From: Krasilnikovia cinnamomea
GTDB taxonomy: Bacteria; Actinomycetota; Actinomycetes; Mycobacteriales; Micromonosporaceae
Length of the DNA: 64,000 nt
Direction: 5' to 3'
Assembly: GCF_004217545.1 (NCBI RefSeq)
Contig: NZ_SHKY01000001.1
Span: 5,580,001-5,644,000 of the forward strand
Shown one piece after another: positions 3,694-47,273 of the stretch. Made by a program: the position numbers and the translations under genes. Below the pieces are notes generated by a model. It was given only the letters and a program-made list of their open reading frames with translations. It ran no database searches and was not told where the DNA came from. Every line of letters starts with the position of its first letter. Positions within the stretch are counted from its first letter, which is position 1.

Positions 3694-3921
3694 TCACCGG
3701 CCTCCGTTCAACTGACACCGTCGACGCGGCGCCGGAGGTTTCCACCCGTCCGCTGGTGACTTGGTCAGCGCCGAGTCTCCGCTTCCAGTGTCGGCCAGCT
3801 GCTCGGCCTCGCCGAGGGGACGGTCTTCGGGCTCGCCGGCGGCGTACTCGATCACCAGAGTGCCGGGGCCGCAGACGACCACCATGTCCCGCGCCCTCAG
3901 ATACGCCGCGACATCCCCTAA

Positions 3922-8598: not shown

Positions 8599-8646
8599 AC
8601 CCAGCAGGAGATCACCTGGCCACCAGCACGGAATTCCGCTGTCCGC

Positions 8647-28332: not shown

Positions 28333-28803
28333 CTAAATCCTTTTGGCCATCTGTTGCGACATGACCCGGTATCCGAGGCTCTCGTACAATCGGATGGCTC
28401 GCTTATTCTGGCCGAAGACGTTGAGTCCAAGTCTCGTCACTCTCAACTGACTCAGTTCCTCCTCGATCGCAAGGAGGATCGCCCGCCCGTAACCGTTGGA
28501 CCGGTAGTCCGGGTCTACTTCGATGTTGTGCAGCCACGCCATTTCCGGCCGACCGGGGGCTCCGGGCAATGAGGCCCAGACCCATCCGACCACGTTGCTG
28601 TCCACGCATGCGGAGCGCAGGATCATCTTGTCGCTGTCGAAACCTTCGGGGAGAACCACCTTCATCTGACGCAGCGCCTCGGCAGCTGCGTCAGATTCGG
28701 TCATGCCCCGCTCACGCTGCAGGTCTCCGGAATATCGGGACAGCAGGGTGCCCACTCGCTCTTCGAAGGCGGACCGAGACATCGGAATAAGTGCAACCGT
28801 CAT
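28333..28803 (-). CDS. GNAT-family N-acetyltransferase
   Basis: The product is 156 aa. The acetyl-CoA motif A is visible as VDPDYRSNGYGRAILLAIEE (R-x-x-G-x-G/A), followed by RLGLNVFGQNKRAIRLYESL and GYRVMSQQM, the usual C-terminal signature. It is divergent from the NRPS cluster and separated by about 750 bp. It could be housekeeping or a self-resistance enzyme; nothing in the sequence decides. Confidence 0.8.
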   Translation of the reverse strand: MTVALIPMSRSAFEERVGTLLSRYSGDLQRERGMTESDAAAEALRQMKVVLPEGFDSDKMILRSACVDSNVVGWVWASLPGAPGRPEMAWLHNIEVDPDYRSNGYGRAILLAIEEELSQLRVTRLGLNVFGQNKRAIRLYESLGYRVMSQQMAKRI

Positions 28804-29559: not shown

Positions 29560-32500
29560 ATGCCCGGATCGACCATCGATTCGCCTACCGTTTCTGCCCT
29601 GCCCACCGGTGCCTCCGAGACGATACCGGCGTTGTTCGCGCAGCGCGTTTCGGCAGATCCCACTGCGATTGCACTTGCTACTCGCGGGGCCAGCTTGACC
29701 TTTGCGGAACTCGACGCGAAAGCCGACCGGCTCGCGCGGAAACTGGCCCGGTACGGGGTAGGACCAGAACGGCTCGCCGGGGTGGTATCGAGCGAACCGG
29801 TGCAGGCGATCGTGGCGATGCTGGCCATTCTGAAATGTGGTGGCGCCTATCTGCCCCTGGACGCCGAATACCCCGCTGAGCGACTGAAGTTCATCATTGC
29901 CGACGCCGCCCCGGTGCTCCTGCTGACCGGCCGAGAATCGGTGCGCGCCGTGCCCGCGTTCACCGGGCCCCGCATCCCGATCACCGCCGACGCCGACGCC
30001 GACGCCGACGAGATTAGCGGCGGCGAGGTGAGTCTGCAGGCGGAGGTGGCGAACCTCGCCTACGTCATCTACACCTCGGGTTCGACCGGTACGCCGAAGG
30101 GTGTGGCGGTCTCCCACGCCGGCCTTTCCGGTCTGGTGCGTGAGCAGTCCCGCCGGTTCGAGATCGGGCCGGGATCCCGCGTCCTGCAATTCGCGTCGCT
30201 CTGTTTTGACGCATCCGTCTCGGAAATCTGGACCACCCTCTTGTCGGGCGCCACCCTCGTTTGTCCGGAGAAGGGACGGCTGCTGCCGGGCAGCATGCTC
30301 GCCGAATTCGTCCAGGAGCAGAACGTCAGCCATCTGACCTTGCCGCCCACCGCGCTGGACATAATGGCGCCGGAAGATCTGCCGGCGGTGACCGTCGTCG
30401 TCGCGGGGGAGGCCTGTGCGCCGGAGGTCGCGCGGAAATGGAGTGTCGGGCGCAGGCTGATCAACGCATACGGGCCGACGGAGACCACCGTCTGCGCCAC
30501 CATGAGTAACCCCCTCACCTCGGGTGAGACCCCGATCGGCCGCCCTCTGGCGGGCACCAGCGCCCACGTGTTGGACACCGCTCTGCGGCTGGTACCGGTG
30601 GGTGTTGTCGGGGAGCTGTATGTGTCGGGTGCCGGGCTGGCGCGGGGTTATGTGGGTCGGCCGGGTGTGACCGCGGAACGGTTCGTGGCGGATCCGTTCG
30701 CCGGGGACGGCCGGCGGATGTACCGCACGGGTGATCTGGTGCGGTGGCGTGAGGATGGTCAGCTCGAGTTCGTCGGACGTTCCGATGCGCAGGTCAAGAT
30801 TCGCGGGTACCGGGTGGAGCCGGGCGAGGTGGAGTCGGCGCTGCGGGCCTTGGACGGGGTGGCCCAGGCGATAGTCGTGGCAGACACCGACTCCGGCGGC
30901 CGCCGTCGGCTGGTCGGCTACGTCACCGCACGCGCCAACGGCCCCCTCGATGTCGCATGGCTGCGCAAGCAGTTGACGAACGTGCTCCCCGACTATCTGG
31001 TACCAGCCCATCTTGTTCAGCTGGACCGGATTCCGCTGACGCCGAGCGGCAAGGTGGACCACGGGTCGTTGCCCGCGCCGGAGGTGGTCGCCTCGAATGG
31101 CGGCAAGCCACGAACCCGGCGGGAACAGATACTGTGCGCCGCGTTCGCCGAAGTCCTAGGCGTCGAGGAGGTCGGCATCGACGACGACTTCTTCGATCTC
31201 GGCGGCGACAGCATCGTGTCGATCAACCTCATCTCCGTGGTCCGCCGCTCCGGGCTGGTCATCAAGCCGCGGGACATCTTCAAACATCGCAAGGTCGCGC
31301 CACTGGCGGCTGCCGCAACGGTCCGGGAACCCGAACCGGCGGCAGCGTTGGCCGACAACCTCGGGTCAGTGCCGCCGTCCCCGATCATGCATTGGCTCGC
31401 CGAGCGAACCACCGAGATCCGCGGGTTCCATCAGTCGATGGTGGTGCAGGTGCCCGCCGGCGCGACGGAGTCGCTTCTCACCGGTGCTCTGCAGGTGCTT
31501 CTCGACCACCACGATGCCCTGCGGATGCAGGTGGTCCCGGCATCGGACGGGCAGGGCTTCGACCTGACGGTCCGGGAACCCGGCGACGTCCGCGCGGACG
31601 GCTGCTTGGCGCGGGTCGACATCAGCGGATGGACGGAACGGGCGCGGCAGGTCGGTGAGGAGACGGCCGCCCGGGCGGCCGTCGACCGACTCGCACCCGA
31701 GTCCGGCGTGATGTTGCAGGCCGTCTGGTTCACCGACGGGCCGGAGGCGGGCCGGCTGTTGCTCGTCGTCAATCACATGGCCGTCGACGGGGTCTCCTGG
31801 CGCATCCTTATGCCGGACCTGCGGTCCGCCTACGAGGCCCTCGCTCGGGGCGAAGATCCGGTACTCCCGCCGGTGGGTACCTCCCTGCGCCAATGGTCAG
31901 AACGGCTCGTCGAGGAGGCCAGTGCTCCCCGCCGGGTCCAGGAGGCCGACTACTGGAGTTCCCTGCTGCCCGACCGTCAGCCGGTGATCGGCCGGCGGCC
32001 GATCGACCCGCAGCGGGACCGTACCCGTGACCTCGCATCGGTGACCGTGGAGCTGCCGGTCGACGTCTCCCGGGTCATTCTGACCACCGCCCCGGCAACC
32101 TTCCGCGCCCGCATCAACGACGTCCTGCTGGCCGCGCTGGGGCTCGCGACGGCGAAATGGCTGGGCAGCCGCGATGAAACCGGTCCGATCGTGGTCGACG
32201 TCGAGGGCCACGGCCGGGAGGACATCCTCCCCGGAGTGGACCTCTCCCGGACGGTCGGGTGGTTCACCACCGTGTTCCCGGTGGTGCTCGACCTGGCGGC
32301 GGCCGACTGGACCGCGGTCCGCGCCGGTGAGCCGGTCGTAGGACGCGCGGTGAGGACAGTGAGGGAGAAGCTGCGCGGCCTTCCCGACAACGGCATCGGG
32401 TACGGCATCCTCCGCTATCTGGACGGTCCGGCCCGGTCACGGATGCCTCGGGGGCCGCAGGCTGCCATCGGCTTCAACTACCTCGGCCGCTTCGGGACGC

Positions 32501-35500
32501 CCGGCAACGCGGACTGGAGTCCCGCCAGCCGCGGTGGAGAAGTCCTCAGTGGAAGTTTCGACCCGGCGACTCCGGTGGTGCACCCGCTCGCCGTCACGGC
32601 AGTGACGCTCGACGGAGAGGATGGCCCCCGGATCCTGACCGAGTGCTCCTTCCTGCCCGAGGTACTGACGGCCGACGAGGTGAGAGAGTTCACCGACGCG
32701 TGGTCCGACGCCCTCACCGGTCTCGCGAAGCACGTCTCCCAGACCGGCGTCGGAGGCTGCACACCATCAGACTTCCCGCTAGTGGACGTCACCATCAACG
32801 ACATCGAGCGACTCGAGGACGCCTTTCCGGGCCTGGAAGCCGTGCTGCCGCTCTCGCCGCTGCAGGAAGGGCTGCTCTTCCACGCCCTGTACGACGAGAA
32901 CGGTCGGGACGTCTACACCGTCCAACTCACGTGCACGCTGACGGGCGATCTGGAGCCGGAGCGGCTGCGCGCCGCCATGAACGCCCTCATCCGCCGGCAC
33001 GGCGCCCTCCGCGCGCGGTTCGTACACACTGGATTGGCGCGGCCGGTGCAGGTCATCGCCCCCGCGGCCGACGGCCTTCCCTGGGACTACCAGGATGTTC
33101 GCTCGTTGGACCCCGGGCAGCGCGAGGAGCACTTCTCGACGATCTGCGCGGCGGAGCGGGCCACTCGATTCGACACCAGCCGCGAGGTGATGGTCCGCTG
33201 TGTCCTCGTCCGGACCGCGGACGAGGAGCACCGGTTGCTCGTCACGAGCCATCACCTCATCTTCGACGGCTGGTCCTCTCGGATCATGGTCCGCGATCTG
33301 CTTGCCCTCTATGCGGCGAACGGCACGGCATCGGCGCTGCCGCCGGCCGCCCCGTACTCCGACTTCCTTGCCTGGCTTCACGAACAGGACCACGATGCGG
33401 CCACCGCGGCCTGGCGTACCGCGTTGGCGGGCCTCACCGGTCCCACCCTCGTGGCGGGACCACGCGCCGCGTCCGCGGCTACGCCGGCGGACCGAATCGA
33501 CCTCGCCCTGACAACCGAGGAGAGCGCCCGGCTCATCCGCTTCGCGCGGTCGTGCGGGCTTACGCTCAACACCGTCTTCCAGGGAGCCTGGGCGCTGCTG
33601 CTCAGCCATCTCACGGGCATCGATGACGTGGTGTTCGGCGCCACCGTCGCCGGTCGTCCACCCGAGGTGCCCCGCGCCGACGAGATGGTCGGCCTCTTCA
33701 TCAACACGCTGCCGGTCCGCGCCCGGATCGATCGGTCACGGCCGGGCAACACATTCCTGACCGACCTGCAGGATCGCCAGGCCGAACTCATGGAATTCTC
33801 CTACGTCGGCCTGGGCCAGTTACAGGCTCTCAGCGGCCTGGCCACGCTGTTCGACACGATCGTGGTGTTCGAAAACTACCCCGGCGGCGGAACCGAGCAG
33901 GACGACGACTCCAGCACGATCCGGCTGAGCGGCCTCGACGGCTATGACGTGACCGACTATGCGCTGGCACTGGTCGTCATGCCGGGGGAGCACATCGACC
34001 TGCGTCTGGACTACCGTTCGGATGCCGTCACGAAATCGCTGGCCGCAAGCATCCTGCACCGGCTGCGGCATCTCCTCCTCGCGATGACGACCGATGCCCG
34101 CATACCGGTCGGACAGCTCACCATCGCCGACCCCGGGGATGCCGCTCAACTGCTGGCTGCCGGAACCGGCGCGGCATCACCGACGATCGCCGGCGGCGTG
34201 GGTGAAGCGATCTGCCGCATCGCGCACGAGCAACCGGACAGCATCGCGGTGCGATGCGGCGATATCGCCCTGTCGTACGGGGAGTTGGACAAAGCCGCGG
34301 CTAGCCTGGCGGCCCGGCTCGTCGCCGCGGGTGTGTGCCCCGAGAGCCGGGTGATCGTCTTCCAGCAGCGCTCGGCCGGCCTGGTGGTCTCGCTGCTGGC
34401 CGTCGCCCGGTCGGGTGCATCGTATGTGCCTCTGCTGGGCAGTTCCCCAACCGCGTGGCTGCGCGAGTCGATCACCGACGCCGCGCCGCGAGTGATCCTC
34501 ACTGATCGGGCCCTGTCGGCACACGAGCTCTTCGCGGAACCTCTAACCGTGCCGATGATCGTCGTCGACGACCCGGCACTGGCTACGTGGGAGCCGCTGG
34601 CACCGCAGCCCTGCCACCCGGACCAGGTCGTCGGCCTGGCGTACACGTCCGGCTCGACCGGGACGGCCAAGCCGGTCGGTACCACACATGCGGACCTACT
34701 CTGGTTGGCATCGGAGCCGAGCTGGGGCGAGAGACCACAGCGGGTTCTGCTGTATTCGCCGCACAATTGGGACGCACTCTCCTTCGAACTGTGGGCTACC
34801 CTCCTGCAGGGCGGCGAGGTCGTCGTCGCGCCGCCTGGTGACACCGACCCCGCCGTCATTCGGGCGCTCGTCGCCCGCTACGACATCAGCCGGATGTGGA
34901 TCACCGCGGGCTTGTTCGATCTGCTCGCCGAGGACGACCCGGCCGCGCTCGCCCGGCTCGACCAGGTGTGGACCGGTGGCGATGTGGTGTCCCCCGAATC
35001 GGTCCACCGATTCCTGACAGCCTGCCCCGACACGCGCCTCTTCAACGGCTACGGCCCGTGCGAGGCGACGGTCTTCACCACGTGTCACCCGATCACGTCC
35101 GCCGCTGAACTGCAGCGCGCCGTTCCCATTGGCAGACCAATCAGTGGCAAGAACGTCTATGTCCTCGACACCGCTCTGCGGCTGGTACCGGTGGGTGTTG
35201 TCGGGGAGCTGTATGTGTCGGGTGCCGGGCTGGCGCGGGGTTATGTGGGTCGGCCGGGTGTGACCGCGGAACGGTTCGTGGCGGATCCGTTCGCCGGGGA
35301 CGGCCGGCGGATGTACCGCACGGGTGATCTGGTGCGGTGGCGTGAGGATGGTCAGCTCGAGTTCGTCGGACGTTCCGATGCGCAGGTCAAGATTCGCGGG
35401 TACCGGGTGGAGCCGGGCGAGGTGGAGTCGGCGCTGCGGGCCTTGGACGGGGTGGCCCAGGCGATAGTCGTGGCAGACACCGACTCCGGCGGCCGCCGTC

Positions 35501-38412
35501 GGCTGGTCGGCTACGTGCTACCCGACGCGGGCCGTACCCTCGACGGGAGTGACCTGCGCCGCCGCTTGTCCGCGGTGGTACCCGACGCTCTGGTACCCGC
35601 CGTGGTCATGGTGGTGGACGCGTTCCCGTTGACCCCGAACGGCAAGGTCGATCGCGCTTCCCTACCGGCGGCTGAGGCGTCGGTGCCGGCCGGCCGACGG
35701 CCACGTACATGGCGTGAACGCGTGTTGTGCGAGGCGTTCGCGGCAGCGCTCGACCGGCAACGGGTGAGCATCGATGACAACTTCTTCGATCTGGGCGGCA
35801 ATTCCCTGATCGCGATACGGCTCATCGGCCGGATCCGAAGTGCCCTGCAGACCGACCTCAACATCCGCGATCTTTTCGAGGCGCCCACCGTCGCCGCCTT
35901 GCAGGAACGCCAGGCCGGGCAGTCGGCCTCCGCGCATGTGAACTTGGTCAGATACCCCCTGCCGGACCGGATCCCCTTGTCGTCCGCCCAGCGCGGCCTG
36001 TGGTTCATCGACCGGCTGCAGGGCGCCAGCCCGGCCTACAACGTGCCGTTGGCTTTGCGCCTCACCGATGACATCGATGTGGTGGCCCTGGATCAGGCGC
36101 TCGCGGATGTGGTTGCGCGCCACGACGCCCTGCGCACCGTCTACCGGGACACCGATGGAGAGCCCTGGCAGACCATTCTTCCACCGGCCGACTGCCCGTT
36201 CCGGCTCATCGAGTGCCGGGTCAGTGAACGAGATCTGATCAGTCGCCTGGAGTCCTGCGCCCGGGAACCGTTCGACTTGGCCGCGCGCCCACCGGTGCGA
36301 GCGAGGTTGTTCCACGTCGAGGCAGGCACGCCCGTCCTGCTGCTCGTCGTCCACCACATCGCCGCCGACGGCGCGTCACTGGCCCCACTGATCCGGGATC
36401 TCGGTGCGGCGTATCGGGCCCGGCGTGCGGGTGAAAGCCCCGAGCTGCCGGAACTCCCCGTCCGCTACGTCGATTTCAGCGAGTGGCAGCGCCAGGTGCT
36501 CGGTGATGAGCAGGACCCGACCAGCGAGATCAGTCGCCAACTCGCCTTTTGGAGGCAGTCCCTCGCCGGCATTCCCGACCACCCGCCGATCCCGACCGAC
36601 CACCCGCGTCGTCCGGCCGTGGACGGCGCGGCCGGGGTGGTCCGTTGGACCCTGCCGGCAACCACCCACGCGGCGTTGCTGGCGCTGGCCCGGCAGAACC
36701 AGGCGACCCTGTTCATGGTTCTGCACACCGCGGTGGCCGCAGCGCTGAGCAGAATGGGCGCCGGTACCGACATCACGGTCGGTGCTCCCGTCGCCGGGCG
36801 GCCGGACTGGATCCTGGATGATCTCGTCGGATACTTCGTCAACACGGTGACGCTGCGAACGGACACCACCGGCCGCCCGTCGTTCCGGACTCTGTTGGCC
36901 CGCGTCCGCGAGGACGACCTTGCCGCCTTCGCTCACCAGGACGTGCCGTTCGACCGCGTGGTGGAGGCGATCAATCCGGTACGGACGCTCGCCTGGCACC
37001 CGCTATACCAGGTGATGCTCAGCATGTTCGATGACCACGCCTACGACGCGGATCTCATTGCCGACACGGCGCAGGAGATTCCGTTGGACCCGGCCGCGGC
37101 TGATTTCGACCTCGCGTTCGAGCTACGGCCGCAGATTCGCCCGGACGGGGAACCTGACGACATCAACGCCGTCCTCGGGTTCCGCGCGGATCTGTTCGAG
37201 CGACAGACGATCGAGCGTCTCGTTGGTGATCTGGACGGCATCCTGCAAGCCGCCCTGGAGGATCCCGACCGCGAGCTGGAGCTCGGTGCTGCGCAGGCGA
37301 CACTGGACGAGCCCAGCGCCGACGTCCCGGTGCCCGCGAGGCAGTCCCCCAGCACCGAACTCGAGCGCACGCTGTGCGGGCTGTTCGCCGAGGCTCTGGG
37401 CCGTGCCGAGGTCGGTGTGTCGGACAACTTCTTCGGCATCGGCGGCCACTCACTGTTAGGTGTACGCCTGATGGCCCGCATTCGGGCCAGGCTGGGCGGT
37501 GACCTGACCGTGCGGGATCTGATCGCACACCCCACGGCCGCCGACCTGGCAACGCGTTTCCAGGACGGCCAGGGAGGCGACGGGTTCGACGTGGCCCTGC
37601 CCCTCCGGGACCGGGCCACCGGACTAGCGCTGTTCTGCTTTCCACCGGCAAGCGGCTTGTCGTGGGCGTACGCCGGACTGCTCGCCCACATCCCGGACGG
37701 CGTCTCGGTTTACGGGCTGCAGGCCCGCGGACTCCAACCGGATGGCGGTGCTCCGCATCAGACGCTGGATGAGATGATCGACGACTATCTCGTCACGCTG
37801 CGCCGGATCCGGCCGAACGGCCCCTACGCGCTGCTCGGCTGGTCGTTCGGTGGCAACATCGCGCACCTCGTCGCGACCAGGCTGCAAGCGGAGGGCGAGG
37901 ATGTGGCCATGCTCGTGCTGCTCGATGCATACCCACCGCAGCCGACGAAGTCCTCGGAAGAAATTGACGAGGCATGGACGGTCCGGGCACTGCTGCGCCT
38001 GAACGGGCATCGGTGCGACGGGGACTGCGAGCTCACCGACCCGCTGGCCCATGCGGCCAGGATCCTGGCTGAGCCGGACGCCCCGCTCTCGGCGTTGCCA
38101 GCCGATCGGATCCGGCGCGTGCTGTCGGTTGTCCGCAACAGCGCCAGGCTCGGGGCCGGGTTGCGCCAGGGGCGGTTCGACGGTGACACGATCCTGTTCG
38201 TTGCCGGCGCCGACGGAGTCGACCCCGAAGACGCGGCGGCGGCGTGGCGACCGTTTCTAGCCGGCGATGTCGAGACCCGGGTCGTCGATGTCACCCACGA
38301 TGGCATGCCCCGGCCCGCCGCCCTGGCACACATCGCCGATGCCCTTCGGCCGGCGTTTGACCGACTGCTGGCACCCGAGATCAGGACCGTGAAAGGCGAA
38401 ATCGATGACTAA
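29560..38412 (+). CDS. Nonribosomal peptide synthetase A-PCP-E / C-A-PCP / C-PCP-TE
   Basis: The product is 2950 aa. A1: core motifs [11 protein letters not shown] (about 171), FDASVSE (about 217), NAYGPTET (about 302); by-eye code DASTVAAVCK, a Tyr/beta-OH-Tyr type. PCP1: GGDS, Ser551. [11 protein letters not shown] (His739), [16 protein letters not shown]2: SHHLIFDG (about 1230). A2: [10 protein letters not shown] (about 1696), code DAFWWGGVFK, Val type. PCP2: Ser2082. C3: VHHIAADG (about 2265). PCP3: IGGHS, Ser2631, with no A domain in this module. TE: GWSFGG Ser2762, Asp2789, His2913. There is no starter C domain, so the chain begins with the A1 residue, epimerised before condensation. 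Module 3 must be loaded in trans, most simply by the free A domain at 42730. The frame is unbroken and the stop overlaps mbtH. Confidence 0.93.
29986..30009 (+). repeat. Four tandem GCCGAC hexamers inside A1
   Basis: Four perfect copies encode Ala-Asp repeats in a variable loop of the first A domain. This is a potential slippage site that would change length by whole codon pairs and keep the frame. Confidence 0.7.
30574..30923 (+). repeat. 350-bp perfect direct repeat, copy in A1
   Basis: This spans A-domain core motifs A6-A9 ([39 protein letters not shown]). The nucleotide sequence appears identical to 35167-35516, at a constant offset of 4593 bp. The flanking A-domain sequence, including the specificity pocket, differs. 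Confidence 0.85.
35167..35516 (+). repeat. 350-bp perfect direct repeat, copy in A2
   Basis: This is the second copy of 30574-30923, in the equivalent place of A2. Identity without even synonymous change between two domains that differ elsewhere points to recent gene conversion or a subdomain exchange downstream of the specificity pocket. Confidence 0.85.
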
Positions 38413-38620
38413 TCCGTTCGACGTCCCGGACGCCGCATACCTCGTGCTCAGCAACGACGAGGACCAGTACTCGCTGTGGCCGGCGTTTGCTGAGGTCCCG
38501 TCCGGCTGGAGTGTGCGGCGGGACGCGACCACCCGGGGGGAAGCCCTGCAGTTCATCGAGGAGAACTGGACCGACATGCGTCCTCGCAGCCTCGTGGAAC
38601 AGATGAACGCCTCTTCCTGA
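38405..38620 (+). CDS. MbtH-like protein
   Basis: The product is 71 aa. The family signature is present: [20 protein letters not shown] (N-x-E-x-Q-x-S-L-W-P), GWSV and [10 protein letters not shown]. MbtH-like proteins bind A domains and support their folding and activity, and Tyr-activating domains often depend on them. The gene overlaps the NRPS stop by 8 bp, so production is coupled. Confidence 0.95.
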
Positions 38621-38666
38621 AAACAACCACGGTGGTTTCGCACACCCCGCCAGAAGGATTGAGGAG

Positions 38667-39011
38667 ATGCATCCCGTACGCCAGTACTACGACTATGTCG
38701 ACCGAGGCGACCTGTCGTCGTTGATCAACCTCTTCGCGGAAGAGGTGATCTACCACCGTCCCGGGTACGCCCCCATCGTCGGGCGGCCGGCGCTTGAGGA
38801 GTTCTACCGGCAGCATCGTGTCATCGAAAGCGGCCGCCACGAGCTCACCGAGGTGGTGGAGGAGAACGACCGAGTGGCCGTACGCGGGCACTTCGCCGGC
38901 AGCCTGAAAGACGGACGCGACGTACAGGTGGCGTTCGCCGACTTCTTCCGCATCGACGCCGAGGGTCTGTTCGTCCGCCGGGACACCTACTTTTTCACCC
39001 CGGCCGTGTGA
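38667..39011 (+). CDS. SnoaL/NTF2-like cone-fold protein
   Basis: The product is 114 aa. MHPVRQYYDYVDRGDLSSLI then FAEEVIYHRPGY and VGRPALEEFY match the SnoaL-like/ketosteroid-isomerase fold, with VAVRGHFAGSLKDGRDVQVA and ADFFRIDAEGL further on. In other pathways such proteins act as cyclases, isomerases or hydroxylase-like enzymes. It lies 46 bp after mbtH and overlaps the aminotransferase start. Its role in an NRPS pathway is not predictable from sequence. Confidence 0.8.
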   Translation: MHPVRQYYDYVDRGDLSSLINLFAEEVIYHRPGYAPIVGRPALEEFYRQHRVIESGRHELTEVVEENDRVAVRGHFAGSLKDGRDVQVAFADFFRIDAEGLFVRRDTYFFTPAV

Positions 39012-40186
39012 GCTTGTCGACGACAGCGAAGGGCGAGATGGAGATGATGGACGCACCCCCTCGACCGCAGGAGGTGTCTGTGGCGGATCTCCGAGGTCTG
39101 GCGCCGATGCCCGTCAACCCGCGCATCGATGACAATCGACGGCTCGAGGAGCCCGCCGGGCCAGCGTTCGGTCAGGCGTTCACTGAGCACCTGGTCTCGT
39201 TGGAGTGGACGTCCGCACGCGGGTGGCACGACCCCGGACTGCGCGAGCTCCACGCGCTCGACTGGCACCCCGCAACCGTGGGCCTGCACTACGGTCAGGC
39301 GGTGTTCGAGGGACTGAAGGCATATCGCCTGCCCGACGACGGCATGGGACTCTTCAGACCCGAAGCCCATGGCCGCCGCCTGCAGGCCTCCGCGCGACGC
39401 CTCTGCCTGCCCGTCCTTCCGGTCGACCTCTTCACCGCCGCCGTGACCCGCCTGGTGACGGCCGATGCGCACCTGCTTCCCGACGGTCCGGGGCTGAGCC
39501 TGTACCTCAGACCGCTGCTGTACGCCGCGGACGAATCGCTGGCCCTACGGCCGGGCCGTCGTTGCCGATTTCTGGTGATGGCATTCGTCACCGAAGGATT
39601 CTTCGGACCGGACGTGCGGCCCATCCGGGTCTGGGTCAACGAACGGTCCGCTCGTGCCGTGCCCGGCGGGACCGGCGCCGTGAAATACGCGGGCAACTAC
39701 GCGACCTCCTACGCGGCTCAGGAGGAAGCGAACGCTCAGGACTGCGACCAGGTCGTCTGGCTCGATGCCCTGGAACGCCGCTGGATCGAGGAACTTGGCG
39801 CCATGAACGTCTTTTTCGTGTACGGCAGCGGCTCCGACGCGCGACTGGTCACGCCACCGCTGGATGGGAACATCCTTCCCGGAATCACCCGCGACTCGGT
39901 GCTGACCCTGGCCGACCATCTCGGATACCGCACCGAGCAGCGCCGGATCTCGGTGGACGAGTGGAGGGTGGGCTGCGGTACCGGAGAGATCACCGAGGTG
40001 TTCGCGACCGGCACCGCCGCAGGGGTGTCACCGGTCGGCGACGTACGCTCGCGGACCCGTGACTGGACCGTCGGCAACGGCCGTCCCGGACCGATCACCA
40101 CCACACTGCACCGGGAACTGCGGCGCATACAGCGTGGACAGCGCAGGACGCCGGCATGGATGCACAGGGTCACGGAGGTGTCGTGA
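39008..40186 (+). CDS. Branched-chain amino acid aminotransferase (IlvE-like)
   Basis: The product is 392 aa from a GTG that overlaps the previous stop; an internal ATG at 39038 is an alternative. It is a fold-type IV PLP enzyme: LHYGQAVFEGLKAYR near the N-terminus, PLP Lys in GGTGAVKYAGNYATSY, the phosphate-binding region EITEVFATGTAAGVSPVG and IEELGAMNVFFVY. These are full-length BCAT features. In a biosynthetic cluster it probably supplies or transaminates a branched-chain or related 2-oxo acid, for example for the Val-type A2 domain or the third residue. Confidence 0.9.
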   Translation: MSLSTTAKGEMEMMDAPPRPQEVSVADLRGLAPMPVNPRIDDNRRLEEPAGPAFGQAFTEHLVSLEWTSARGWHDPGLRELHALDWHPATVGLHYGQAVFEGLKAYRLPDDGMGLFRPEAHGRRLQASARRLCLPVLPVDLFTAAVTRLVTADAHLLPDGPGLSLYLRPLLYAADESLALRPGRRCRFLVMAFVTEGFFGPDVRPIRVWVNERSARAVPGGTGAVKYAGNYATSYAAQEEANAQDCDQVVWLDALERRWIEELGAMNVFFVYGSGSDARLVTPPLDGNILPGITRDSVLTLADHLGYRTEQRRISVDEWRVGCGTGEITEVFATGTAAGVSPVGDVRSRTRDWTVGNGRPGPITTTLHRELRRIQRGQRRTPAWMHRVTEVS

Positions 40187-41379
40187 CCGTGGCAAACCCC
40201 TTCCCCGTCGACCTGGCAGACCCTCAGCTGTACCGCAGCGCCCGGCGCTACGACATGTGGCGCGACTTCGTGTCCGCCGACCAGGTGGTATGGAGTCCAC
40301 CCGGAAAATCACCTACTGGCTTCTACTCGGTGTTCTCGCACGCGGCATGCTCTCAGGTACTCGCGCCGAATGCGCCGTTCACGTCCGAGTACGGAATGAT
40401 GATCGGCTTCGACCGGGACCATCCCGACAAGGCCGGGCAGCACATGCTCGTGGTCGCGGAGGGCGACCGGCACTCGAGCCTACGGCGGTTGATCGGCCCG
40501 TTCCTTTCCCGAGCCTCGGCGTCCTCCCTGCAGGGTTTCGTCGAGCGGGAGGTCGCCGAGCTGCTCGTGCTGCTGCGGACCGGCGCCGATTCGAATGCGG
40601 CCGTCCAGGCGGGATCAAGACTGCCGGCCGCTGTCGTGTGCGAGATCCTCGGCGTGCCGGACTCGGATCGGGAACTTGTCATCACACTCACCAACCACGC
40701 GTTCGGCGGCGAAGAACCGTCGATGGCGGACATGTCACCGTCCGAAGCGCACGCCGAGATCCTCAGCTATTTCGTCGACATCATCGCGGACCATCGGCGC
40801 CACCAGCGTAGCGACCTCGTTGCTGCCATGATCGACGAAGGGACGATGGATGATCGGGCGATCCTGATGAACTGCGACAACGTCCTGATCGGCGGCAACG
40901 AGACCACCCGACACGCCGTGACCGGCGCCTTCCACGCCCTCGCCACCGCGGGCGACCTGCTGCCGCGCCTGCGTGCCGGGCAGTTCCGGATCGAACAGGC
41001 CGTCGAGGAGATCCTGCGGTGGACGTCGCCGGCGATGCACGTCCTGCGCGTGGCCACGCGCGACGTCACCGTCGCAGGGCAGAAGATCGCCGAGGGGACG
41101 CCCGTCGTCGCCTGGCTGCCCGCCGCGAACCGGGACCCCCGGATGTTCACCGCACCGGATGTCGTTCGCGCGGACCGGCACCCCAACCGCCATCTGACCT
41201 TCGGGCACGGTCCGCACCACTGCCTCGGGGCGGCGCTGGCCCGTGTCGAACTCGGCGTACTGCTGACTGCGCTGACTGCGAAGCTGGAAGGGCTCGAGAT
41301 CGCGGGAGTTCCGCAATGGATGAGCGTCCTTCAGGTCCAGGGGTACAGCAGCCTGCCCCTCACCTTCCAGTGGCGATGA
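40183..41379 (+). CDS. Cytochrome P450, NikQ/OxyD-like (carrier-bound amino acid hydroxylase type)
   Basis: From GTG 40183, preceded by GGAGG and overlapping the aminotransferase stop, the product is 398 aa (ATG 40156 is an alternative). I-helix GGNETTRHA, EEILRW (E-x-x-R) and heme loop FGHGPHHCLGAALARVE with the ligand Cys are present. The N-terminal FTSEYGMMIGFDRDHPD and the GNETTRHA helix resemble P450s that beta-hydroxylate amino acids tethered to a PCP (NikQ, NovI, OxyD group). With a Tyr-type A1, beta-hydroxylation of PCP-bound Tyr is the leading guess; another oxidation is possible. No ferredoxin gene is adjacent. Confidence 0.85.
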   Translation: MTVANPFPVDLADPQLYRSARRYDMWRDFVSADQVVWSPPGKSPTGFYSVFSHAACSQVLAPNAPFTSEYGMMIGFDRDHPDKAGQHMLVVAEGDRHSSLRRLIGPFLSRASASSLQGFVEREVAELLVLLRTGADSNAAVQAGSRLPAAVVCEILGVPDSDRELVITLTNHAFGGEEPSMADMSPSEAHAEILSYFVDIIADHRRHQRSDLVAAMIDEGTMDDRAILMNCDNVLIGGNETTRHAVTGAFHALATAGDLLPRLRAGQFRIEQAVEEILRWTSPAMHVLRVATRDVTVAGQKIAEGTPVVAWLPAANRDPRMFTAPDVVRADRHPNRHLTFGHGPHHCLGAALARVELGVLLTALTAKLEGLEIAGVPQWMSVLQVQGYSSLPLTFQWR

Positions 41380-41464
41380 CAGGCTGAAATCTCCATTCAC
41401 GAAACTGCGCTCGTATCGGCATGCAGCTCGCTGTCATGCCTTGAAGAGGAAGGGCCGCTCGACA

Positions 41465-42733
41465 TTGTCAGATCCCGCCGCCGAGGAGGCGGAGCAAGTC
41501 CCGCTCGGCCGTAACCGCGACTTCAAGCGGCTGTGGTTGAGCCAAGCATTGTCCGCAACCGGGTCGCGCGTCAGCTTCCTCGTCTATCCACTGCTCATCC
41601 TCGCGCTCTTCGAATCCGTCGCCGCGGCCAGTGCCGTAGCCGCCGTCTGCGCCCTCTCTGAGGTCGTCGCCCGGCTACCAGCAGGGGTGTTGCTCGACCG
41701 TCTCCAACGCCGGTCGGTGATGCTCTGGTGCGAGACCGCCCGCATCCTCGCGATGGTCGTCGCCATCGTAACGATCGCCACCGGCAGCGCCACGCTTTGG
41801 CTGATCATGTTGGTCGCGGCGGTGGATGCGGGCGGCGCCGCGCTCTTCGTCTCCGCGGAACGGACGGCACTGCGCCACATCGTGCCGATGGAGCAGATCC
41901 AGACTGCGGCCGCCCGCAACGAGGCCCGCACCTTTACCGCCGAACTTCTCGGCCCCGCACTGGGCGGCGTGCTTCTGAACATCGCCCGGGTGGCGCCGTT
42001 CATTTTCAATGCGTTCGCTTACTCCCTCTCATTCCTGTCCGTCCTGGCCATCCGCAAGCCACTGCAGAGCCCTCGCGAGCAGGACGGCGAGGGGGTATGG
42101 GCCTCCTTCCTCATCGGTGCCCAGTTCCTGTTCCACCAGCCGTTCCTACGTGCCCTGGCCGCCATCGGGCCCCTGCTCAACATGGCTTTCACCGGCACCA
42201 TGTTCGTCGTCGTGGTGGTGCTGAACGAGGCCGGTGTGCCGTCCTACGGCGTAGGTGTATGCCTGGCCGTCGTAGCGTCCGGCGGCATCCTCGGAGCGGT
42301 CCTCGCGCCGATGCTGCAGCGCAAGCTCCCGCCCCGGCGGCTCGTGGTGATTCTCTCCTGGACGAGCGCATCTATGGTGGCGCTCTGCATCGTGCTGCCC
42401 GCCGGTTACTGGATGGTGGTACCGCTGCCGATCCTCGTACTTTTCGCGCCGCCGACCACCTCCATCCTGTTCGGGCACCAAACGGCGGTGACGCCAGACC
42501 ATCTGCACGGCCGCGTCGTCGCCGCCATGGGCCTGCTGATCTCCGGGCTCAACCCCTTCGCGCCCTTGTTGGCGGGACTTCTGCTGGAGACTTGGAATCA
42601 CGCCGTGGCGTTCGCCGCGTTCACGTTCATCTTCGTGATTGCATCGATCATCGTGACTTTCAGCAAGGGTGTGCGCATGTTGTCGGCGGCGAAGTTTGCC
42701 CCCGGTATCGTAGAAAGGACCTCACACCCATGA
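41465..42733 (+). CDS. MFS transporter, probable peptide exporter
   Basis: From TTG 41465 (GAGGAAGG upstream; TTG 41441 is an alternative) the product is 422 aa with about 12 membrane segments, for example VSFLVYPLLILALFE and the A-motif-like LPAGVLLDRLQRRSVML. It resembles the drug-export type MFS (MdtG/EntS-like) common in siderophore and peptide clusters. It ends in an ATGA overlap with the free-standing A-domain gene, so it belongs to the operon and probably exports the product. Confidence 0.85.
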   Translation: MSDPAAEEAEQVPLGRNRDFKRLWLSQALSATGSRVSFLVYPLLILALFESVAAASAVAAVCALSEVVARLPAGVLLDRLQRRSVMLWCETARILAMVVAIVTIATGSATLWLIMLVAAVDAGGAALFVSAERTALRHIVPMEQIQTAAARNEARTFTAELLGPALGGVLLNIARVAPFIFNAFAYSLSFLSVLAIRKPLQSPREQDGEGVWASFLIGAQFLFHQPFLRALAAIGPLLNMAFTGTMFVVVVVLNEAGVPSYGVGVCLAVVASGGILGAVLAPMLQRKLPPRRLVVILSWTSASMVALCIVLPAGYWMVVPLPILVLFAPPTTSILFGHQTAVTPDHLHGRVVAAMGLLISGLNPFAPLLAGLLLETWNHAVAFAAFTFIFVIASIIVTFSKGVRMLSAAKFAPGIVERTSHP

Positions 42734-44274
42734 CCCCGCAATCGCTCTACGCATGGTTCGCAGCCAGCGTCGAGGCCTACCCGGAAGCGACCGCCATCGA
42801 GGTCAGGGGCCGTGCACTGTCATACCGGCACCTGCACGATGTCGTCGAGGAACTGGCCGCGCTCATCGCGAGCCGACCCGGCGGACCGTACCGGCGGATC
42901 GCCGTTCCCAGCGACCGGGGCGCCATCGGCTACGTGGCGTATCTGGCCGTGCAGCGATTGGGCGCAACGGTCGTACCGGTCAATCCCGATTTCCCGTCGC
43001 AGCGCAACGCAGCGATCTTCGCCGCAGCTGAAGTGGATCTCCTGGTGGTGGACACCGACGGGATCGCATTCTCACAGATCCCGCACGGCATCACCGCTGT
43101 TGCCGTATCGATGGATGAGCTCGAGCGCGGATCAGCGGATCGCGGCGTCCTCCCCGCTTATCACAGTAGCGAGGACGACGTCGCCTACATCCTGTTCACC
43201 TCCGGCTCGACCGGCACTCCGAAAGGGGTCCCGATCGAGCACCGGAATCTGAACCGCTATCTCGATTTCCACATCCGCCGGTTCCAAGTCGGTCCCGGTT
43301 GTCGACTGTCCCAGGTGTTCGACCTGACCTTCGACCTGTCGGTGTTCGACATGTTCGTCGGCTGGGGCGCGGGTGCGACCGTCGTCGTTGCAGACCGCAT
43401 CGACCTGTTGTCGCCTGCCGACTACATCCGCGAGAAGCGACTGACACACTGGTTCTCCGTACCGTCAGTCGTCTCGCTGGCCGGCGAAGACGGCAGCCTC
43501 CGTCCGGCGTCCCTGCCGTCGCTGCGCTGGAGCATCTTCTGCGGTGAACGGCTCACCTACCGGCAAGCAGGAGCCTGGGCGGCGGCCGCCCCCGGATCGT
43601 CGATCGACAATTTGTACGGTCCAACCGAACTGACCATCTCGTGCACCGCCTACCGGCTTCCGGCCAATCGCGATGAGTGGCCGCGCACGCACAACGACAC
43701 GGTCCCGATCGGGCCGGTCCTGCCGTGGCTGGAGGCGCTGATCGTCGATGAGCGCGGCGACGAGGGAGACGTCGGTGAGCTATGCGTACGCGGTCCGCAG
43801 CGGTTCGCCGGCTATCTGGATCCGGTCGAGAACCAGCACCGGTTCTTCGAACCGGCGTTGGCGGACACCCGCGGTCATAGTGGGCCGTTGACCGACGACC
43901 ACTACTACCGAACCGGCGATGTGGTGAGGGTCGAACCGGCCGGGATCGTCCATGTGGGTCGTGTGGACCACCAGATCAAAAACAGGGGATTCCGGATCGA
44001 GCCGGGCGACATCGAGGCGGTCCTTAATCGGCACCCCTCCATAAATGAGGCGATCGTTGTCACACCGCACGATGGGTCGGAGCCCGAGCTGCTGGCAGCG
44101 TACACCGGCGATCCCGTCGCAGTGAACGAGCTCATGCAGTACACCCACCAACACCTGCCCGCCTACATGGTGCCGGTCGGCTTCGTGCGGCTGGAAAGCC
44201 TTCCACGCACCAGCAACGGCAAGGTCGACCGGCGATCGATCACAAAGACGGTGCAGTCGGTGTGGCGGGTCTGA
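42730..44274 (+). CDS. Free-standing adenylation domain
   Basis: The product is 514 aa, a complete A domain without [76 protein letters not shown], and the catalytic Lys in RTSNGKVDRRS. The by-eye pocket code DLFFICLISK is not one I can assign. The Asp235 equivalent is kept, so an alpha-amino acid substrate is likely. It is coupled to the MFS gene (ATGA). Because the third NRPS module has C and PCP but no A domain, this enzyme most simply loads PCP3 in trans. Alternatively it could make an adenylate for the neighbouring ATP-grasp step. Confidence 0.9.
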   Translation: MTPQSLYAWFAASVEAYPEATAIEVRGRALSYRHLHDVVEELAALIASRPGGPYRRIAVPSDRGAIGYVAYLAVQRLGATVVPVNPDFPSQRNAAIFAAAEVDLLVVDTDGIAFSQIPHGITAVAVSMDELERGSADRGVLPAYHSSEDDVAYILFTSGSTGTPKGVPIEHRNLNRYLDFHIRRFQVGPGCRLSQVFDLTFDLSVFDMFVGWGAGATVVVADRIDLLSPADYIREKRLTHWFSVPSVVSLAGEDGSLRPASLPSLRWSIFCGERLTYRQAGAWAAAAPGSSIDNLYGPTELTISCTAYRLPANRDEWPRTHNDTVPIGPVLPWLEALIVDERGDEGDVGELCVRGPQRFAGYLDPVENQHRFFEPALADTRGHSGPLTDDHYYRTGDVVRVEPAGIVHVGRVDHQIKNRGFRIEPGDIEAVLNRHPSINEAIVVTPHDGSEPELLAAYTGDPVAVNELMQYTHQHLPAYMVPVGFVRLESLPRTSNGKVDRRSITKTVQSVWRV

Positions 44275-44310
44275 CGCGATCCGGAATTCTTCTGAGAGAA
44301 GGGTCATCGC

Positions 44311-45612
44311 ATGCAGGATGGTCGTCGTCCCCGTCTCATCGTCATGTTCGAGGAAGGAGCGGTCACCCCGTCCGAAATCCTGCTGAGCCTCACGGAATGG
44401 GCTGACCTCATCATCGTGCTCGGCGACTCACCGTACACCCTGACGGCCGCGCCCTTCCTCGAAGGCATCGCCGAAACGACGCCGCTGCAACAGCCGCGCG
44501 ATCAGCTGATCGCGCTACTGCGGCAGTGGGAGCCCGACGGCATCATCACGTACGCAGAAAGAATGCTCGTTCCCACCGCCGAGATCGCGGACGCGCTGAA
44601 TCTGCTGTTCCATTCGCCGGAGACGGCGATGCTGCTGCGCGACAAGTACGCCCAGCGGCGGCGGCTGGCGGCCGCCGGCGTTCAGGAGACCAAGAGCGCC
44701 CACCTACGCGATACCACGCAATGGTCGAATGTTGTGCGCGATGTCGGACTTCCCGTAGTGGTCAAGCCACGGCTCGGTGAGGGAAGCCAGTACACGCACC
44801 TGGTACGCGACGAGGCCTCCGGCGCGATGCTGCTCAGCCGCCTGGCCGCGGAGTACGGCGGCGAGCTTGTCGCCGAGGAGTTTATCGAAGGTCAATCCCG
44901 GTTACCGTTCGGCGACTACGTCTCAGTGGAGAGTTACGTCGTCGAGGGCGAGATCACTCATCTCGCCATCACCGGGAAATTCCCCATTTTGCCCCCGTTC
45001 CGGGAACAGGGCCACTTCTGGCCCGCACCGGTCTCGTCCGCCGAACACGACGAGATCATCGCCCTGACCCGGCGTGCATTGCTCGCCCTCGATATCCGCA
45101 CCGGCATCACCCATACCGAGGTGAAACTGACCTCTGAAGGCCCACGACTGATCGAGGTGAACGGCCGCATCGGCGGTCAGATCAACGAGCTGGCACTGCG
45201 CGCGTGCGGGGTGGATCTGATCGCGGCGGCCGCCGCGATCGCAATGGGCCATCCCGTCCATGGGTTGGCATTAAATCCACAGGGAACGTTCTTTCAATAC
45301 CACAACCTGCCGCCGCTAGCGGCGTGCCGGCTGACCGAGGTCAGCGGCGTGCAGGACGCCAAGCAGGTCGACGGCGTCCAGTCATACGAGGTTTACCTGC
45401 ACCCACCGGCGGAACTGAACCGCGGAGTGATGACGACGTGGATCGACGTCATCCGGGGACGGGCCACCAACCACCTCGAGATGCTGGACATCCTCGACCG
45501 CGCGAACGCGAAACTGTCATTCACCTATGACACGGTTGAGGGGCCTCTGACCGCGCCGGCGATGTGGACGCTGCAACGAACCGGTAGCGCCCTGGTCGGC
45601 CCGCCCATCTGA
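44311..45612 (+). CDS. ATP-grasp carboxylate-amine ligase
   Basis: The product is 433 aa. A pre-ATP-grasp region (residues 1-105) precedes LRDKYAQRRRLAAAGVQ, ATP-binding GLPVVVKPRLGEGSQYTHLV, the adenine/metal region ELVAEEFIEG and the Mg-binding end HTEVKLTSEGPRLIEVNGRI. The fold is that of BacD/biotin-carboxylase-like ligases, which activate a carboxylate as acyl phosphate and join it to an amine. It is the last gene of the cluster, 36 bp after the A domain. It probably adds an amino acid or amine to the peptide or builds a dipeptide precursor. Confidence 0.88.
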   Translation: MQDGRRPRLIVMFEEGAVTPSEILLSLTEWADLIIVLGDSPYTLTAAPFLEGIAETTPLQQPRDQLIALLRQWEPDGIITYAERMLVPTAEIADALNLLFHSPETAMLLRDKYAQRRRLAAAGVQETKSAHLRDTTQWSNVVRDVGLPVVVKPRLGEGSQYTHLVRDEASGAMLLSRLAAEYGGELVAEEFIEGQSRLPFGDYVSVESYVVEGEITHLAITGKFPILPPFREQGHFWPAPVSSAEHDEIIALTRRALLALDIRTGITHTEVKLTSEGPRLIEVNGRIGGQINELALRACGVDLIAAAAAIAMGHPVHGLALNPQGTFFQYHNLPPLAACRLTEVSGVQDAKQVDGVQSYEVYLHPPAELNRGVMTTWIDVIRGRATNHLEMLDILDRANAKLSFTYDTVEGPLTAPAMWTLQRTGSALVGPPI

Positions 45613-45641: not shown

Positions 45642-45770
45642 CTCAGCAAGGAAGAGCTACTAATTCTGGATGACACGGGTGAATAGGTAGTATCGGACGT
45701 TCCTGGAAATAGACGTGGAGCCATCGATAGACAGGTCTTGCGACAGATCCACGTCTTCGAGAGGGCTCCA

Positions 45771-46577
45771 CGTGCTGGCTTATCGTGCCATGGTCGACGT
45801 TCCGAGGGAACTGGTGCAGCACGTGGCCCGGTTGCTGCACGCCGAGCGCCGCGCGCTTGGCACCCGGAAGAAGACTCGCGCGCTGACCTGCTTCTACCAG
45901 GCATTGTTCGTGCTCGTCTGGTTCCGTAAGCAGGAGGACCTGACCCTGCTGGGCGCCGGCTTCGGGGTCTCGCGGGCGACCGCATACCGCTACCGCGACG
46001 AAGGCGTCGCGGTCCTCGCCGCGCAGGCGATCGATCTGCACACCGCCCTGCGCCGGGCTGCCGCCGACGGCTGGTCATACGTGATCCTCGACGGCAAGCT
46101 GTTCGACTGCGACCGGCTCACCGAGACCACCCTGTCGGTCAAAGGCGCAACGATCGACGCCTGGTATTCCGGAAAGCACCGCGACTTCGGCGCGAACATC
46201 CAAGCGATCATGCGTCCGGACGGGCTACCGATCTGGACCTCACAGGCAATGCCAGGGCATCTGCACGACACCAGCTGCGCCCGCGAACTCGGTGTGACCG
46301 CAGCGCTGAACTGGTCCGCCGCCGAACTCGACCTGCCCACACTGGCCGACTCCGGCTACGAAAGCGCAGGTCACGGCATCAAAACGCCGATCAAGCAACC
46401 CGCCGACGGGAAACCACTCGCACCCGACAACCGCGCCCACAACCGGCTGCTACGCGGCCTGCGCTGGCAAGGCGAACGCGGCTTCGCCATCCTGATCGGA
46501 CGCTGGAAAACACTACGCCACACCACGATCAGCCCACGCCGGATCGGCGACGTCGTCGCCGCCGCACTGCACCTGAC
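45771..46577 (+). pseudogene. IS5-type transposase, 3' end missing
   Basis: GTG 45771 (or ATG 45789) opens a frame with KTRALTCFYQALFVLVWFRK, an HTH (DLTLLGAGFGVSRATAYRYR), WSYVILDGKLFDCDRL (first D), LPTLADSGYESAGHGIKTPI (second D) and GFAILIGRWKTLRHTTISP. Homology stops at VVAAALHLT (46577), where the last about 7 residues and the right end of the IS should be. Another transposase scrap is fused there. Its left end lies somewhere in 45642-45770. Confidence 0.75.
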
Positions 46578-46757
46578 GCGCTCAACGCGGGGCGTATCGA
46601 CGTCGAATCGCTGCGCCGACGCCTGGCCGGGGTGCCGTTGCCGCGGGCGGCGGACGGCCGCCTGGTCCTCGCGGTGGATGTCTCGCCGTGGCTGCGCCCG
46701 GACGGCAACTGCAGCCGCAGCGTTCCTTTTGCCACACCTACGGCCGCGGCAAGGACG
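46578..46757 (+). pseudogene. IS701-like transposase scrap, frameshifted
   Basis: One frame reads LNAGRIDVESLRRRLAGVPL then RAADGRLVLAVDVSPWLRPD. After one missing base near 46716 another frame gives PQRSFCHTYGRGKDEH. The pair VDVSPWLRP plus CHTYGRGK is a signature of an actinobacterial IS701-type transposase (about 400 aa). Only about 60 residues remain, bounded by two other broken genes. Confidence 0.6.
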
Positions 46758-47224
46758 AACACGTCCGCCGACGCGGCCGGTCCGAGGAACGTGGCGACGT
46801 TCAGCGCCACCGCGGCCTCGACGTCACCGGCGTCCAGCAGTTCCTGCTCGCGGGCACCGAACTTCAGGATCGCCTCGGTGGGCGGGTGCAGCCGCGTCGC
46901 CGCGCAGAGCAGCACCAGTGCCGTGACCCGCCTGGGCCACCTTGCGGCGATTTCCTGGGCGACCCGGCCACCGTAGGAGGAGCCGATCAGGATGGCGTCG
47001 GACACCTGCAGCGCATCGAGCAGATCCCGGACGTCGTCGGCCGCGTTGAACGCTTCGGTCGGGGCCGGCGACTCGCCATGCCCCCGGAAGTCGCAGCGCA
47101 CCACGCGGTATCCGGTGTCCAGCAGGATCTGCCACTGCGGGTCCCACATCCGCCGATCGCAGACCGAGGAGTGCAGCAGGACCACCGCCGGACCCGTCCC
47201 GGCCACGTCATGAGCAAGAAGCAC
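46757..47224 (-). pseudogene. Alpha/beta hydrolase, C-terminal part missing
   Basis: From a GTG at 47224 the frame gives about 155 residues of a hydrolase: GTGPAVVLLHSSVCDRRMWD (oxyanion region), RVVRCDFRGHGESPAPTE, nucleophile elbow LIGSSYGGRVAQEIA, and a cap start LNVATFLGPAASADV. The fold needs about 250-280 aa with Asp and His later on, which are replaced by the IS701 scrap. The 891-bp IS copy 2 lies 49 bp upstream of the start. Confidence 0.75.
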
Positions 47225-47273
47225 CGGCCGACAGTAGCCGACTGGTGAGGAGCATCGGACCGGAATCCGCTAA

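What the first reader, a model, noticed from the sequence alone, without database searches (positions are those of the whole stretch)
29560..45612. NRPS cluster whose last module has no A domain, with a free A domain and an ATP-grasp ligase nearby
The synthetase reads A-PCP-E / C-A-PCP / C-PCP-TE. Module 3 has a full C domain (VHHIAADG) and a PCP (IGGHS) but goes straight to the thioesterase. A lone A domain and an ATP-grasp ligase end the same operon. The simplest model is loading of PCP3 in trans by the lone A domain, giving D-Tyr-type/Val-type/X, with the ATP-grasp enzyme adding or preparing one further unit. I do not recognise this gene set (MbtH, SnoaL-like, BCAT, NikQ-like P450, MFS, A, ATP-grasp) as a known pathway.
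Basis: partly seen in the sequence, partly recalled or inferred. Interest (0 to 1): 0.82.

Follow-up and report, generated by a model that had tools for sequence, protein, structure and literature searches.

The report
Peptide synthetase with separately supplied module
This actinobacterial gene cluster builds a short modified peptide; the last station of its assembly line cannot pick its own amino acid and is most likely loaded by a free-standing enzyme made in the same operon, a known trick in a gene set that none of the sources searched here describes.

Summary
One 2,950-aa synthetase at 29560-38412 reads A1-PCP1-E / C1-A2-PCP2 / C2-PCP3-TE. It is followed in one operon by MbtH, SnoaL, BCAT, P450, MFS, a PCP-less A protein and an ATP-grasp ligase. 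Two partly syntenic clusters (Actinomadura terrae, Symbioplanes lichenis) share A1, PCP1, E, C1, PCP2, TE, MbtH, P450, MFS and ATP-grasp. Both lack exactly the C2-PCP3 pair and the lone A gene, so these occur together or not at all (three clusters only). The lone A is sister (99/98) to free A proteins from three other clusters whose synthetases also have an A-less C-PCP. Trans-loading of PCP3 is therefore well supported, but not proven. Refinements: the P450 is OxyD-like (55%), pointing to beta-hydroxylation of the A1 residue (Tyr-type code). SnoaL+BCAT looks like the aminotransferase/isomerase pair that makes L-allo-Ile, so A2 probably takes allo-Ile (or Val/Ile). The ATP-grasp gene is common to all three clusters and not a partner of the lone A in particular. 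In both relatives A2 is dead and a stand-alone A-PCP protein probably replaces it. The loading trick is known (SyrE/SyrB1, ramoplanin, albicidin). MIBiG could not be searched.

The parts
29560..38412 (+). NRPS, 2950 aa: A1-PCP1-E / C1-A2-PCP2 / C2-PCP3-TE
29638..31074 (+). A1, code DASTVAAVCK (Tyr / beta-hydroxy-Tyr type; assignment from own knowledge)
   Evidence: clade with A1 of both relatives 100/100
31108..31329 (+). PCP1 (LGGDS), best-conserved domain (63-65% to relatives)
31357..32739 (+). E domain ([10 protein letters not shown]; first His replaced by Asn)
   Evidence: Condensation-family hit; motif read
32782..34119 (+). C1 ([10 protein letters not shown])
34177..35679 (+). A2, code DAFWWGGVFK; TSGSTG, Asp235, Glu of A5 and A10 Lys kept, but unusual A3 'AKPVG' and A5 'GPCE'
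30574..30923 (+). 350-bp tract identical to 35167-35516 (A1/A2 homogenised, gene-conversion-like)
   Evidence: repeat also
35167..35516 (+). second copy of the 350-bp identical tract, in A2
35692..35913 (+). PCP2, equivalent to the last PCP of the two-module relatives
35968..37278 (+). C2 (VHHIAADG) of the A-less module, absent from both relatives
37339..37563 (+). PCP3 (IGGHS), no cis A domain, absent from both relatives
37597..38409 (+). TE (GWSFGG), 47-49% to relatives
38405..38620 (+). MbtH-like protein
38667..39011 (+). SnoaL/NTF2-like protein, proposed isomerase partner of the BCAT (L-allo-Ile)
   Evidence: PMC7459860, PMC9943842
39008..40186 (+). ilvE_II-type branched-chain aminotransferase
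40156..41379 (+). P450, 55% (213/390) to PDB 3mgx (OxyD, balhimycin Tyr beta-hydroxylase by own knowledge)
41441..42733 (+). MFS exporter
42730..44274 (+). lone A protein, code DLF(F/S)ICLISK (fourth position depends on the alignment), all core motifs, no PCP
44311..45612 (+). ATP-grasp ligase (BacD / L-amino acid ligase-like)

Best explanation
A small NRPS operon for a linear or cyclised short peptide. Step 1 (inferred): A1 loads Tyr on PCP1, the OxyD-like P450 hydroxylates it at the beta carbon while tethered, and E makes the D form. Step 2 (inferred): BCAT plus SnoaL convert Ile to L-allo-Ile, which A2 loads on PCP2 (Val/Ile possible). Step 3 (best supported by comparison, not shown biochemically): C2-PCP3 has no A domain in cis; the free A protein at 42730-44274 adenylates a third amino acid X, probably small, and loads it straight on PCP3 in trans. 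C2 extends the chain and TE releases it. Step 4 (inferred): the ATP-grasp ligase adds one unit to the released peptide or supplies a capping unit, and the MFS protein exports the product.
For: PCP3 is the only carrier in the window without a cis A, and there is no free PCP. Two partly syntenic clusters lack exactly the C2-PCP3 pair and the lone A, while sharing A1, PCP1, E, C1, PCP2, TE, MbtH, P450, MFS and ATP-grasp; no lone-A relative above 39% was found in A. terrae. Lone-A family: its sister clade (99/98) comes from three clusters, two of whose synthetases have at least two C and two PCP but a single A by Pfam (L171, L173), and the third (L172) shows a C followed by a PCP without A by HMM. 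Most other members checked sit near free carrier proteins (L174-L178, L136, L080). The lone A keeps the A core motifs and folds with confidence. P450: 481 bits to 3mgx. SnoaL+BCAT recur as neighbours at 52-57% identity in three other NRPS clusters. The A2 clade includes A domains from a SnoaL+BCAT cluster (L184) and from one next to a SnoaL gene (L186). An aminotransferase/isomerase pair making L-allo-Ile is established (PMC7459860, PMC9943842). Trans supply to a C-T-TE module is established (SyrE/SyrB1, PMC8949500).
Against: No biochemistry. Only three syntenic clusters, and the two relatives are close to each other, so co-occurrence rests on few events and gain versus loss is not polarised. 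C2-PCP3 itself is not especially close to the A-less modules of L171-L173 (C2 30-38%), so the pair was not inherited with the lone A. The nearest solved structures are VinM and IdnL7, free A proteins that can act differently. A2 has two rare changes (A3 'AKPVG', A5 'GPCE'), and its equivalents in both relatives are dead, so A2 may be weakened. The allo-Ile assignment rests on gene pairing and clade; that DsaE is SnoaL-like is my own knowledge.
Confidence: 0.7

Rival explanations
1. The lone A is an amide-forming enzyme (VinM/IdnL7 or streptothricin ORF19 kind): it joins its aminoacyl-AMP directly to an amine, alone or together with the ATP-grasp ligase, and does not load PCP3.
For: VinM and IdnL7 are the nearest solved structures. 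Stand-alone A proteins that form amides exist (Maruyama 2012, listed in the references of PMC11702664). A lone A next to an ATP-grasp gene recurs in the same genome (L136) and in P. rishiriensis (L080).
Against: [quoted passage not shown] PMC11253843) are L, C and S here, while L180-L182 carry the signature and form a separate clade. The lone A-ATP-grasp pairs of L136/L080 are on another branch and have their own free PCP. It would leave PCP3 without a loader.
Confidence: 0.12
2. A2 (or A1) charges PCP3 as well, so one residue is used twice, and the lone A serves something else.
For: A2 and PCP3 are in one chain; one A serving two carriers is conceivable (own knowledge).
Against: The lone A would then have no carrier anywhere in the cluster, and its joint presence/absence with C2-PCP3 would be coincidence.
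Confidence: 0.08
3. C2-PCP3 is a non-extending relic: the chain passes through unchanged or module 3 is dead.
For: Both relatives do without it; relic domains occur in this family (dead A2).
Against: C2 keeps HHxxxDG and PCP3 keeps GGHS; both score as intact by HMM.
Confidence: 0.07

Closest known systems
Syringomycin SyrE [C-T-TE] completed by SyrB1 [A-T] (PMC8949500)
   Same: terminal module lacks A; amino acid activated by a separately encoded protein
   Different: SyrB1 carries its own T, so the residue must be moved between carriers; here the lone A has no PCP and would load PCP3 directly
Albicidin, ramoplanin, enduracidin: inactive A complemented by stand-alone [A-T] (PMC8949500)
   Same: logic of trans supply; the two relatives of this cluster (dead A2 + A-PCP, code DPFWLGGCFK) look like this kind
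   Different: in the window A2 keeps its key residues, there is no A-PCP, and the A-less module is an extra C-PCP
THR1/Thr2 free A plus free carrier (PDB 5n9x; PMC11253843)
   Same: free-standing A, third-ranked structural neighbour, loads a carrier in trans
   Different: carrier there is a free protein; here it is inside an NRPS with C and TE
Actinomadura terrae and Symbioplanes lichenis clusters (no product known to me)
   Same: A1-PCP1-E/C1-A2-PCP2...TE, MbtH, OxyD-like P450, MFS, ATP-grasp
   Different: no C2-PCP3, no lone A, no SnoaL/BCAT found in the stretches examined; dead A2 plus stand-alone A-PCP
Desotamide/globomycin L-allo-Ile pair DsaD/DsaE (PMC7459860, PMC9943842)
   Same: adjacent branched-chain aminotransferase and small isomerase gene in an NRPS cluster
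   Different: no direct sequence comparison with DsaD/DsaE was possible here

Membership tests
NRPS with A-less module loaded in trans (SyrE kind) | a module with C and PCP but no A domain | tested here: met
NRPS with A-less module loaded in trans (SyrE kind) | separately encoded intact A protein in the same cluster | tested here: met
NRPS with A-less module loaded in trans (SyrE kind) | trans A acylates the orphan PCP | not testable with these tools
   needs in vitro loading; indirect support from co-occurrence and tree
SyrB1-like stand-alone [A-T] protein | stand-alone protein carries its own T domain | tested here: not met
   514-aa A only; so the lone A is not a SyrB1-like [A-T] protein, though the supply logic is alike
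VinM/IdnL7-type amide-forming A proteins | Cys/Ala/Thr at the positions of IdnL7 C217/A285/T318 | tested here: not met
   L/C/S in the window; C/A/T in L180-L182 (PMC11253843)
VinM/IdnL7-type amide-forming A proteins | amide formation with an amine acceptor | not testable with these tools
   enzyme assay needed
OxyD-type P450 acting on PCP-bound Tyr | close sequence relation to OxyD | tested here: met
   213/390 identical to 3mgx; that 3mgx is OxyD is own knowledge
OxyD-type P450 acting on PCP-bound Tyr | Tyr-specific A and PCP partner | tested here: inconclusive
   A1 code DASTVAAVCK; specificity assigned from memory, no match in the papers held
L-allo-Ile aminotransferase/isomerase pair (DsaD/DsaE) | adjacent BCAT and isomerase genes in an NRPS cluster | tested here: met
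   38667-39011 and 39008-40186 overlap by 4 nt; pair recurs in L105, L184, L185. That the SnoaL-like protein is an isomerase is inferred
L-allo-Ile aminotransferase/isomerase pair (DsaD/DsaE) | sequence homology to DsaD and DsaE | not tested
ATP-grasp L-amino acid ligases | ATP-grasp domain with similarity to BacD / L-amino acid ligases | tested here: met

The most novel reading that the evidence does not exclude
An NRPS gained one residue without gaining an A domain: a bare C-PCP didomain was inserted before the TE and an unrelated free A gene was recruited into the operon to feed it, while sister clusters solved a different loading problem (dead A2) with a stand-alone A-PCP. The cluster family would be a natural experiment in plug-in module extension.
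Probability: 0.4. Interest if true: 0.6.

Novelty: new member of a known kind. Interest (0 to 1): 0.42.

Why it matters
If true, it predicts a new beta-hydroxy-D-Tyr / allo-Ile peptide with an ATP-grasp-added unit. It also offers a compact A/PCP pair that loads in trans without a carrier of its own, which is useful for NRPS engineering because a bare C-PCP plus a free A could extend a chain. The three related clusters show two different trans-loading solutions on one scaffold.

Tried and rejected
Lone A and ATP-grasp as one co-inherited cassette: rejected, because the ATP-grasp is common to all three clusters while the lone A's closest relatives come from loci without an ATP-grasp hit. C2-PCP3 and lone A acquired together from the L171-L173 lineage: not supported, C2 is only 30-38% alike. 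Ortholog of the relatives' A-PCP elsewhere in this genome: not found, best 42% inside larger NRPSs. Paper searches for the specificity codes, and for NRPS+ATP-grasp combined with all other features, gave nothing. A wider paper search gave four papers, of which only titles and abstracts were seen. Further clusters with a close ATP-grasp: only G520 (52%), which is a different, pantothenate-linked locus. Plasmid records hold only distant ATP-grasp relatives.

Full report
Check of the observation. The window is G000:C1:5580001-5644000 of a 7.6-Mb actinobacterial genome. The reading frame at 29560-38412 encodes 2950 aa. Pfam gives three Condensation-type, two AMP-binding, three PP-binding and one Thioesterase stretch, and an independent HMM scan of every window ORF of at least 50 aa places A domains only at A1, A2 and the free protein at 42730-44274, and PCPs only inside the NRPS. 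So module 3 really is C-PCP-TE, with a short linker and no A remnant. The P450 is closest to OxyD (3mgx, 55% identity). The E-domain motif reads [10 protein letters not shown], with the first His lost.

Related clusters. ATP-grasp relatives were sought in 101 genomes and in the GTDB contigs. Two of them, Actinomadura terrae (L045/L131) and Symbioplanes lichenis (L025/L026/L046), carry an equivalent NRPS with A1 (58-59%), PCP1, E, C1, A2, PCP2, TE, MbtH, P450 (61-66%), MFS (59-60%) and ATP-grasp (58-68%). They are two-module enzymes: alignment shows that the window's extra piece is C2-PCP3, inserted (or retained) between PCP2 and TE. Neither has the lone A, SnoaL or BCAT in the stretches examined, and the best lone-A match in A. 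terrae is 39%, in a large NRPS on another contig. Thus the A-less module and the lone A are both present or both absent. The number of cases is three, and the two relatives are closer to each other than to the window, so this is suggestive rather than conclusive, and gain versus loss is open.

A2. In both relatives A2 is dead by its motifs: A. terrae has lost TSGSTG, Asp235 (N), GPTE (GLGE) and the A10 Lys (NGEVD); S. lichenis has lost A3 and A5 and most of the C-terminal subdomain. Both encode a stand-alone A-PCP upstream with code DPFWLGGCFK, presumably the trans source for PCP2, as in albicidin or ramoplanin (PMC8949500). The window genome has no equivalent A-PCP, and its A2 keeps TSGSTG, Asp235, the A5 Glu and the A10 Lys, though with A3 'AKPVG' (Ala for Pro in 3 of 140 A domains, all three of this A2 family, with A. 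terrae counted twice because two loci cover it) and 'GPCE' (Cys in 1%). A 350-bp tract is identical between A1 and A2. I read A2 as probably active, perhaps weakened.

The lone A. It belongs to a family of free A proteins at 46-52% identity. In a tree of 53 A domains it is sister (99/98) to the lone A proteins of L171, L172 and L173. By Pfam, the L173 and L171 synthetases have one AMP-binding domain but two or more Condensation and two PP-binding stretches, i.e. C-A-PCP-C-PCP; L172 shows a C followed by a PCP with no A by HMM. Other members lie close to free carrier proteins: L174-L178, the same genome's L136 and P. rishiriensis L080. For L179 and the more distant L180-L183 no carrier was looked for. 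The common theme is a carrier without its own A, which in the window can only be PCP3. The nearest solved structures are VinM, IdnL7 and THR1. The residues said to be conserved in VinM-type enzymes (PMC11253843) are not present here, but are in L180-L182, which form another clade. The code DLF(F/S)ICLISK resembles DLFFLCLVSK of L175/L176/L178; its substrate is unknown, and 'small amino acid' is an inference from likeness to Ala-type codes that I know from memory.

SnoaL and BCAT. The pair is adjacent here and again in L105, L184 and L185 at 52-57% identity. L-allo-Ile is made by an aminotransferase plus an isomerase in the desotamide and marformycin pathways, and homologues sit in the globomycin producer (PMC7459860, PMC9943842); that the isomerase is SnoaL-like is my own knowledge, and its sequence could not be compared here. 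The A2 clade contains an A domain of the SnoaL+BCAT cluster L184 and one next to a SnoaL gene in L186. Allo-Ile for A2 is therefore likely but unproven.

ATP-grasp. The protein is related to BacD and L-amino acid ligases, and its family is widely found near NRPS parts. It is common to all three clusters and adjacent to the lone A only in the window, so it most likely acts on the peptide product or an added unit; what it joins is unknown.

Conclusion. Trans-loading of PCP3 by the lone A is the best-supported reading (0.7). It is a new member of a known kind. The product, proposed as beta-hydroxy-D-Tyr / L-allo-Ile / X plus an ATP-grasp-added unit, is inferred from codes and enzyme families.

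Noticed in passing
window 3904-4816 and 47270-48182: Inverted copies of a 913-nt insertion-sequence-like element (99%) flank a 42-kb stretch that holds the cluster; an IS5-type transposase gene (45715-46926) lies directly after the ATP-grasp gene.
   Followed up: no
L136 (G000:C1:2980001-2999900) 8025-11117; also L192: Second locus of the same genome: free PCP + lone A + ATP-grasp beside CoaBC-, PanD- and CoaX-like genes (names by sequence look only). L192 has ATP-grasp, A, PCP-TE, PanD- and CoaX-like genes too. Possibly an unrecognised pantothenate-linked pathway.
   Followed up: partly
L131 6859-16203; L025 12358-19000 with L026: Dead A2 domains at two stages of decay paired with a stand-alone A-PCP protein: natural examples of trans replacement of a lost A domain.
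   Followed up: partly
window 30574-30923 / 35167-35516: 350 bp identical between A1 and A2; A. terrae A1 and A2 are also very alike over the same part, so homogenisation seems recurrent.
   Followed up: partly
L171, L172, L173: Three clusters with an A-less C-PCP module plus a lone A of the same clade; PKS and trans-AT-like genes nearby in at least two (by sequence look).
   Followed up: partly
L050, L057, L065, L100 and others: Recurring gene order A-PCP, P450, free PCP-C, ATP-grasp across many actinobacteria; function not looked into.
   Followed up: no
L184 12111-12563 (-): A protein resembling the small cobalamin-binding subunit of glutamate mutase (by sequence look only) lies near BCAT+SnoaL+ATP-grasp.
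   Followed up: no
window 28333-28803 (-): GNAT acetyltransferase gene directly upstream of the NRPS on the other strand; might be self-protection.
   Followed up: no
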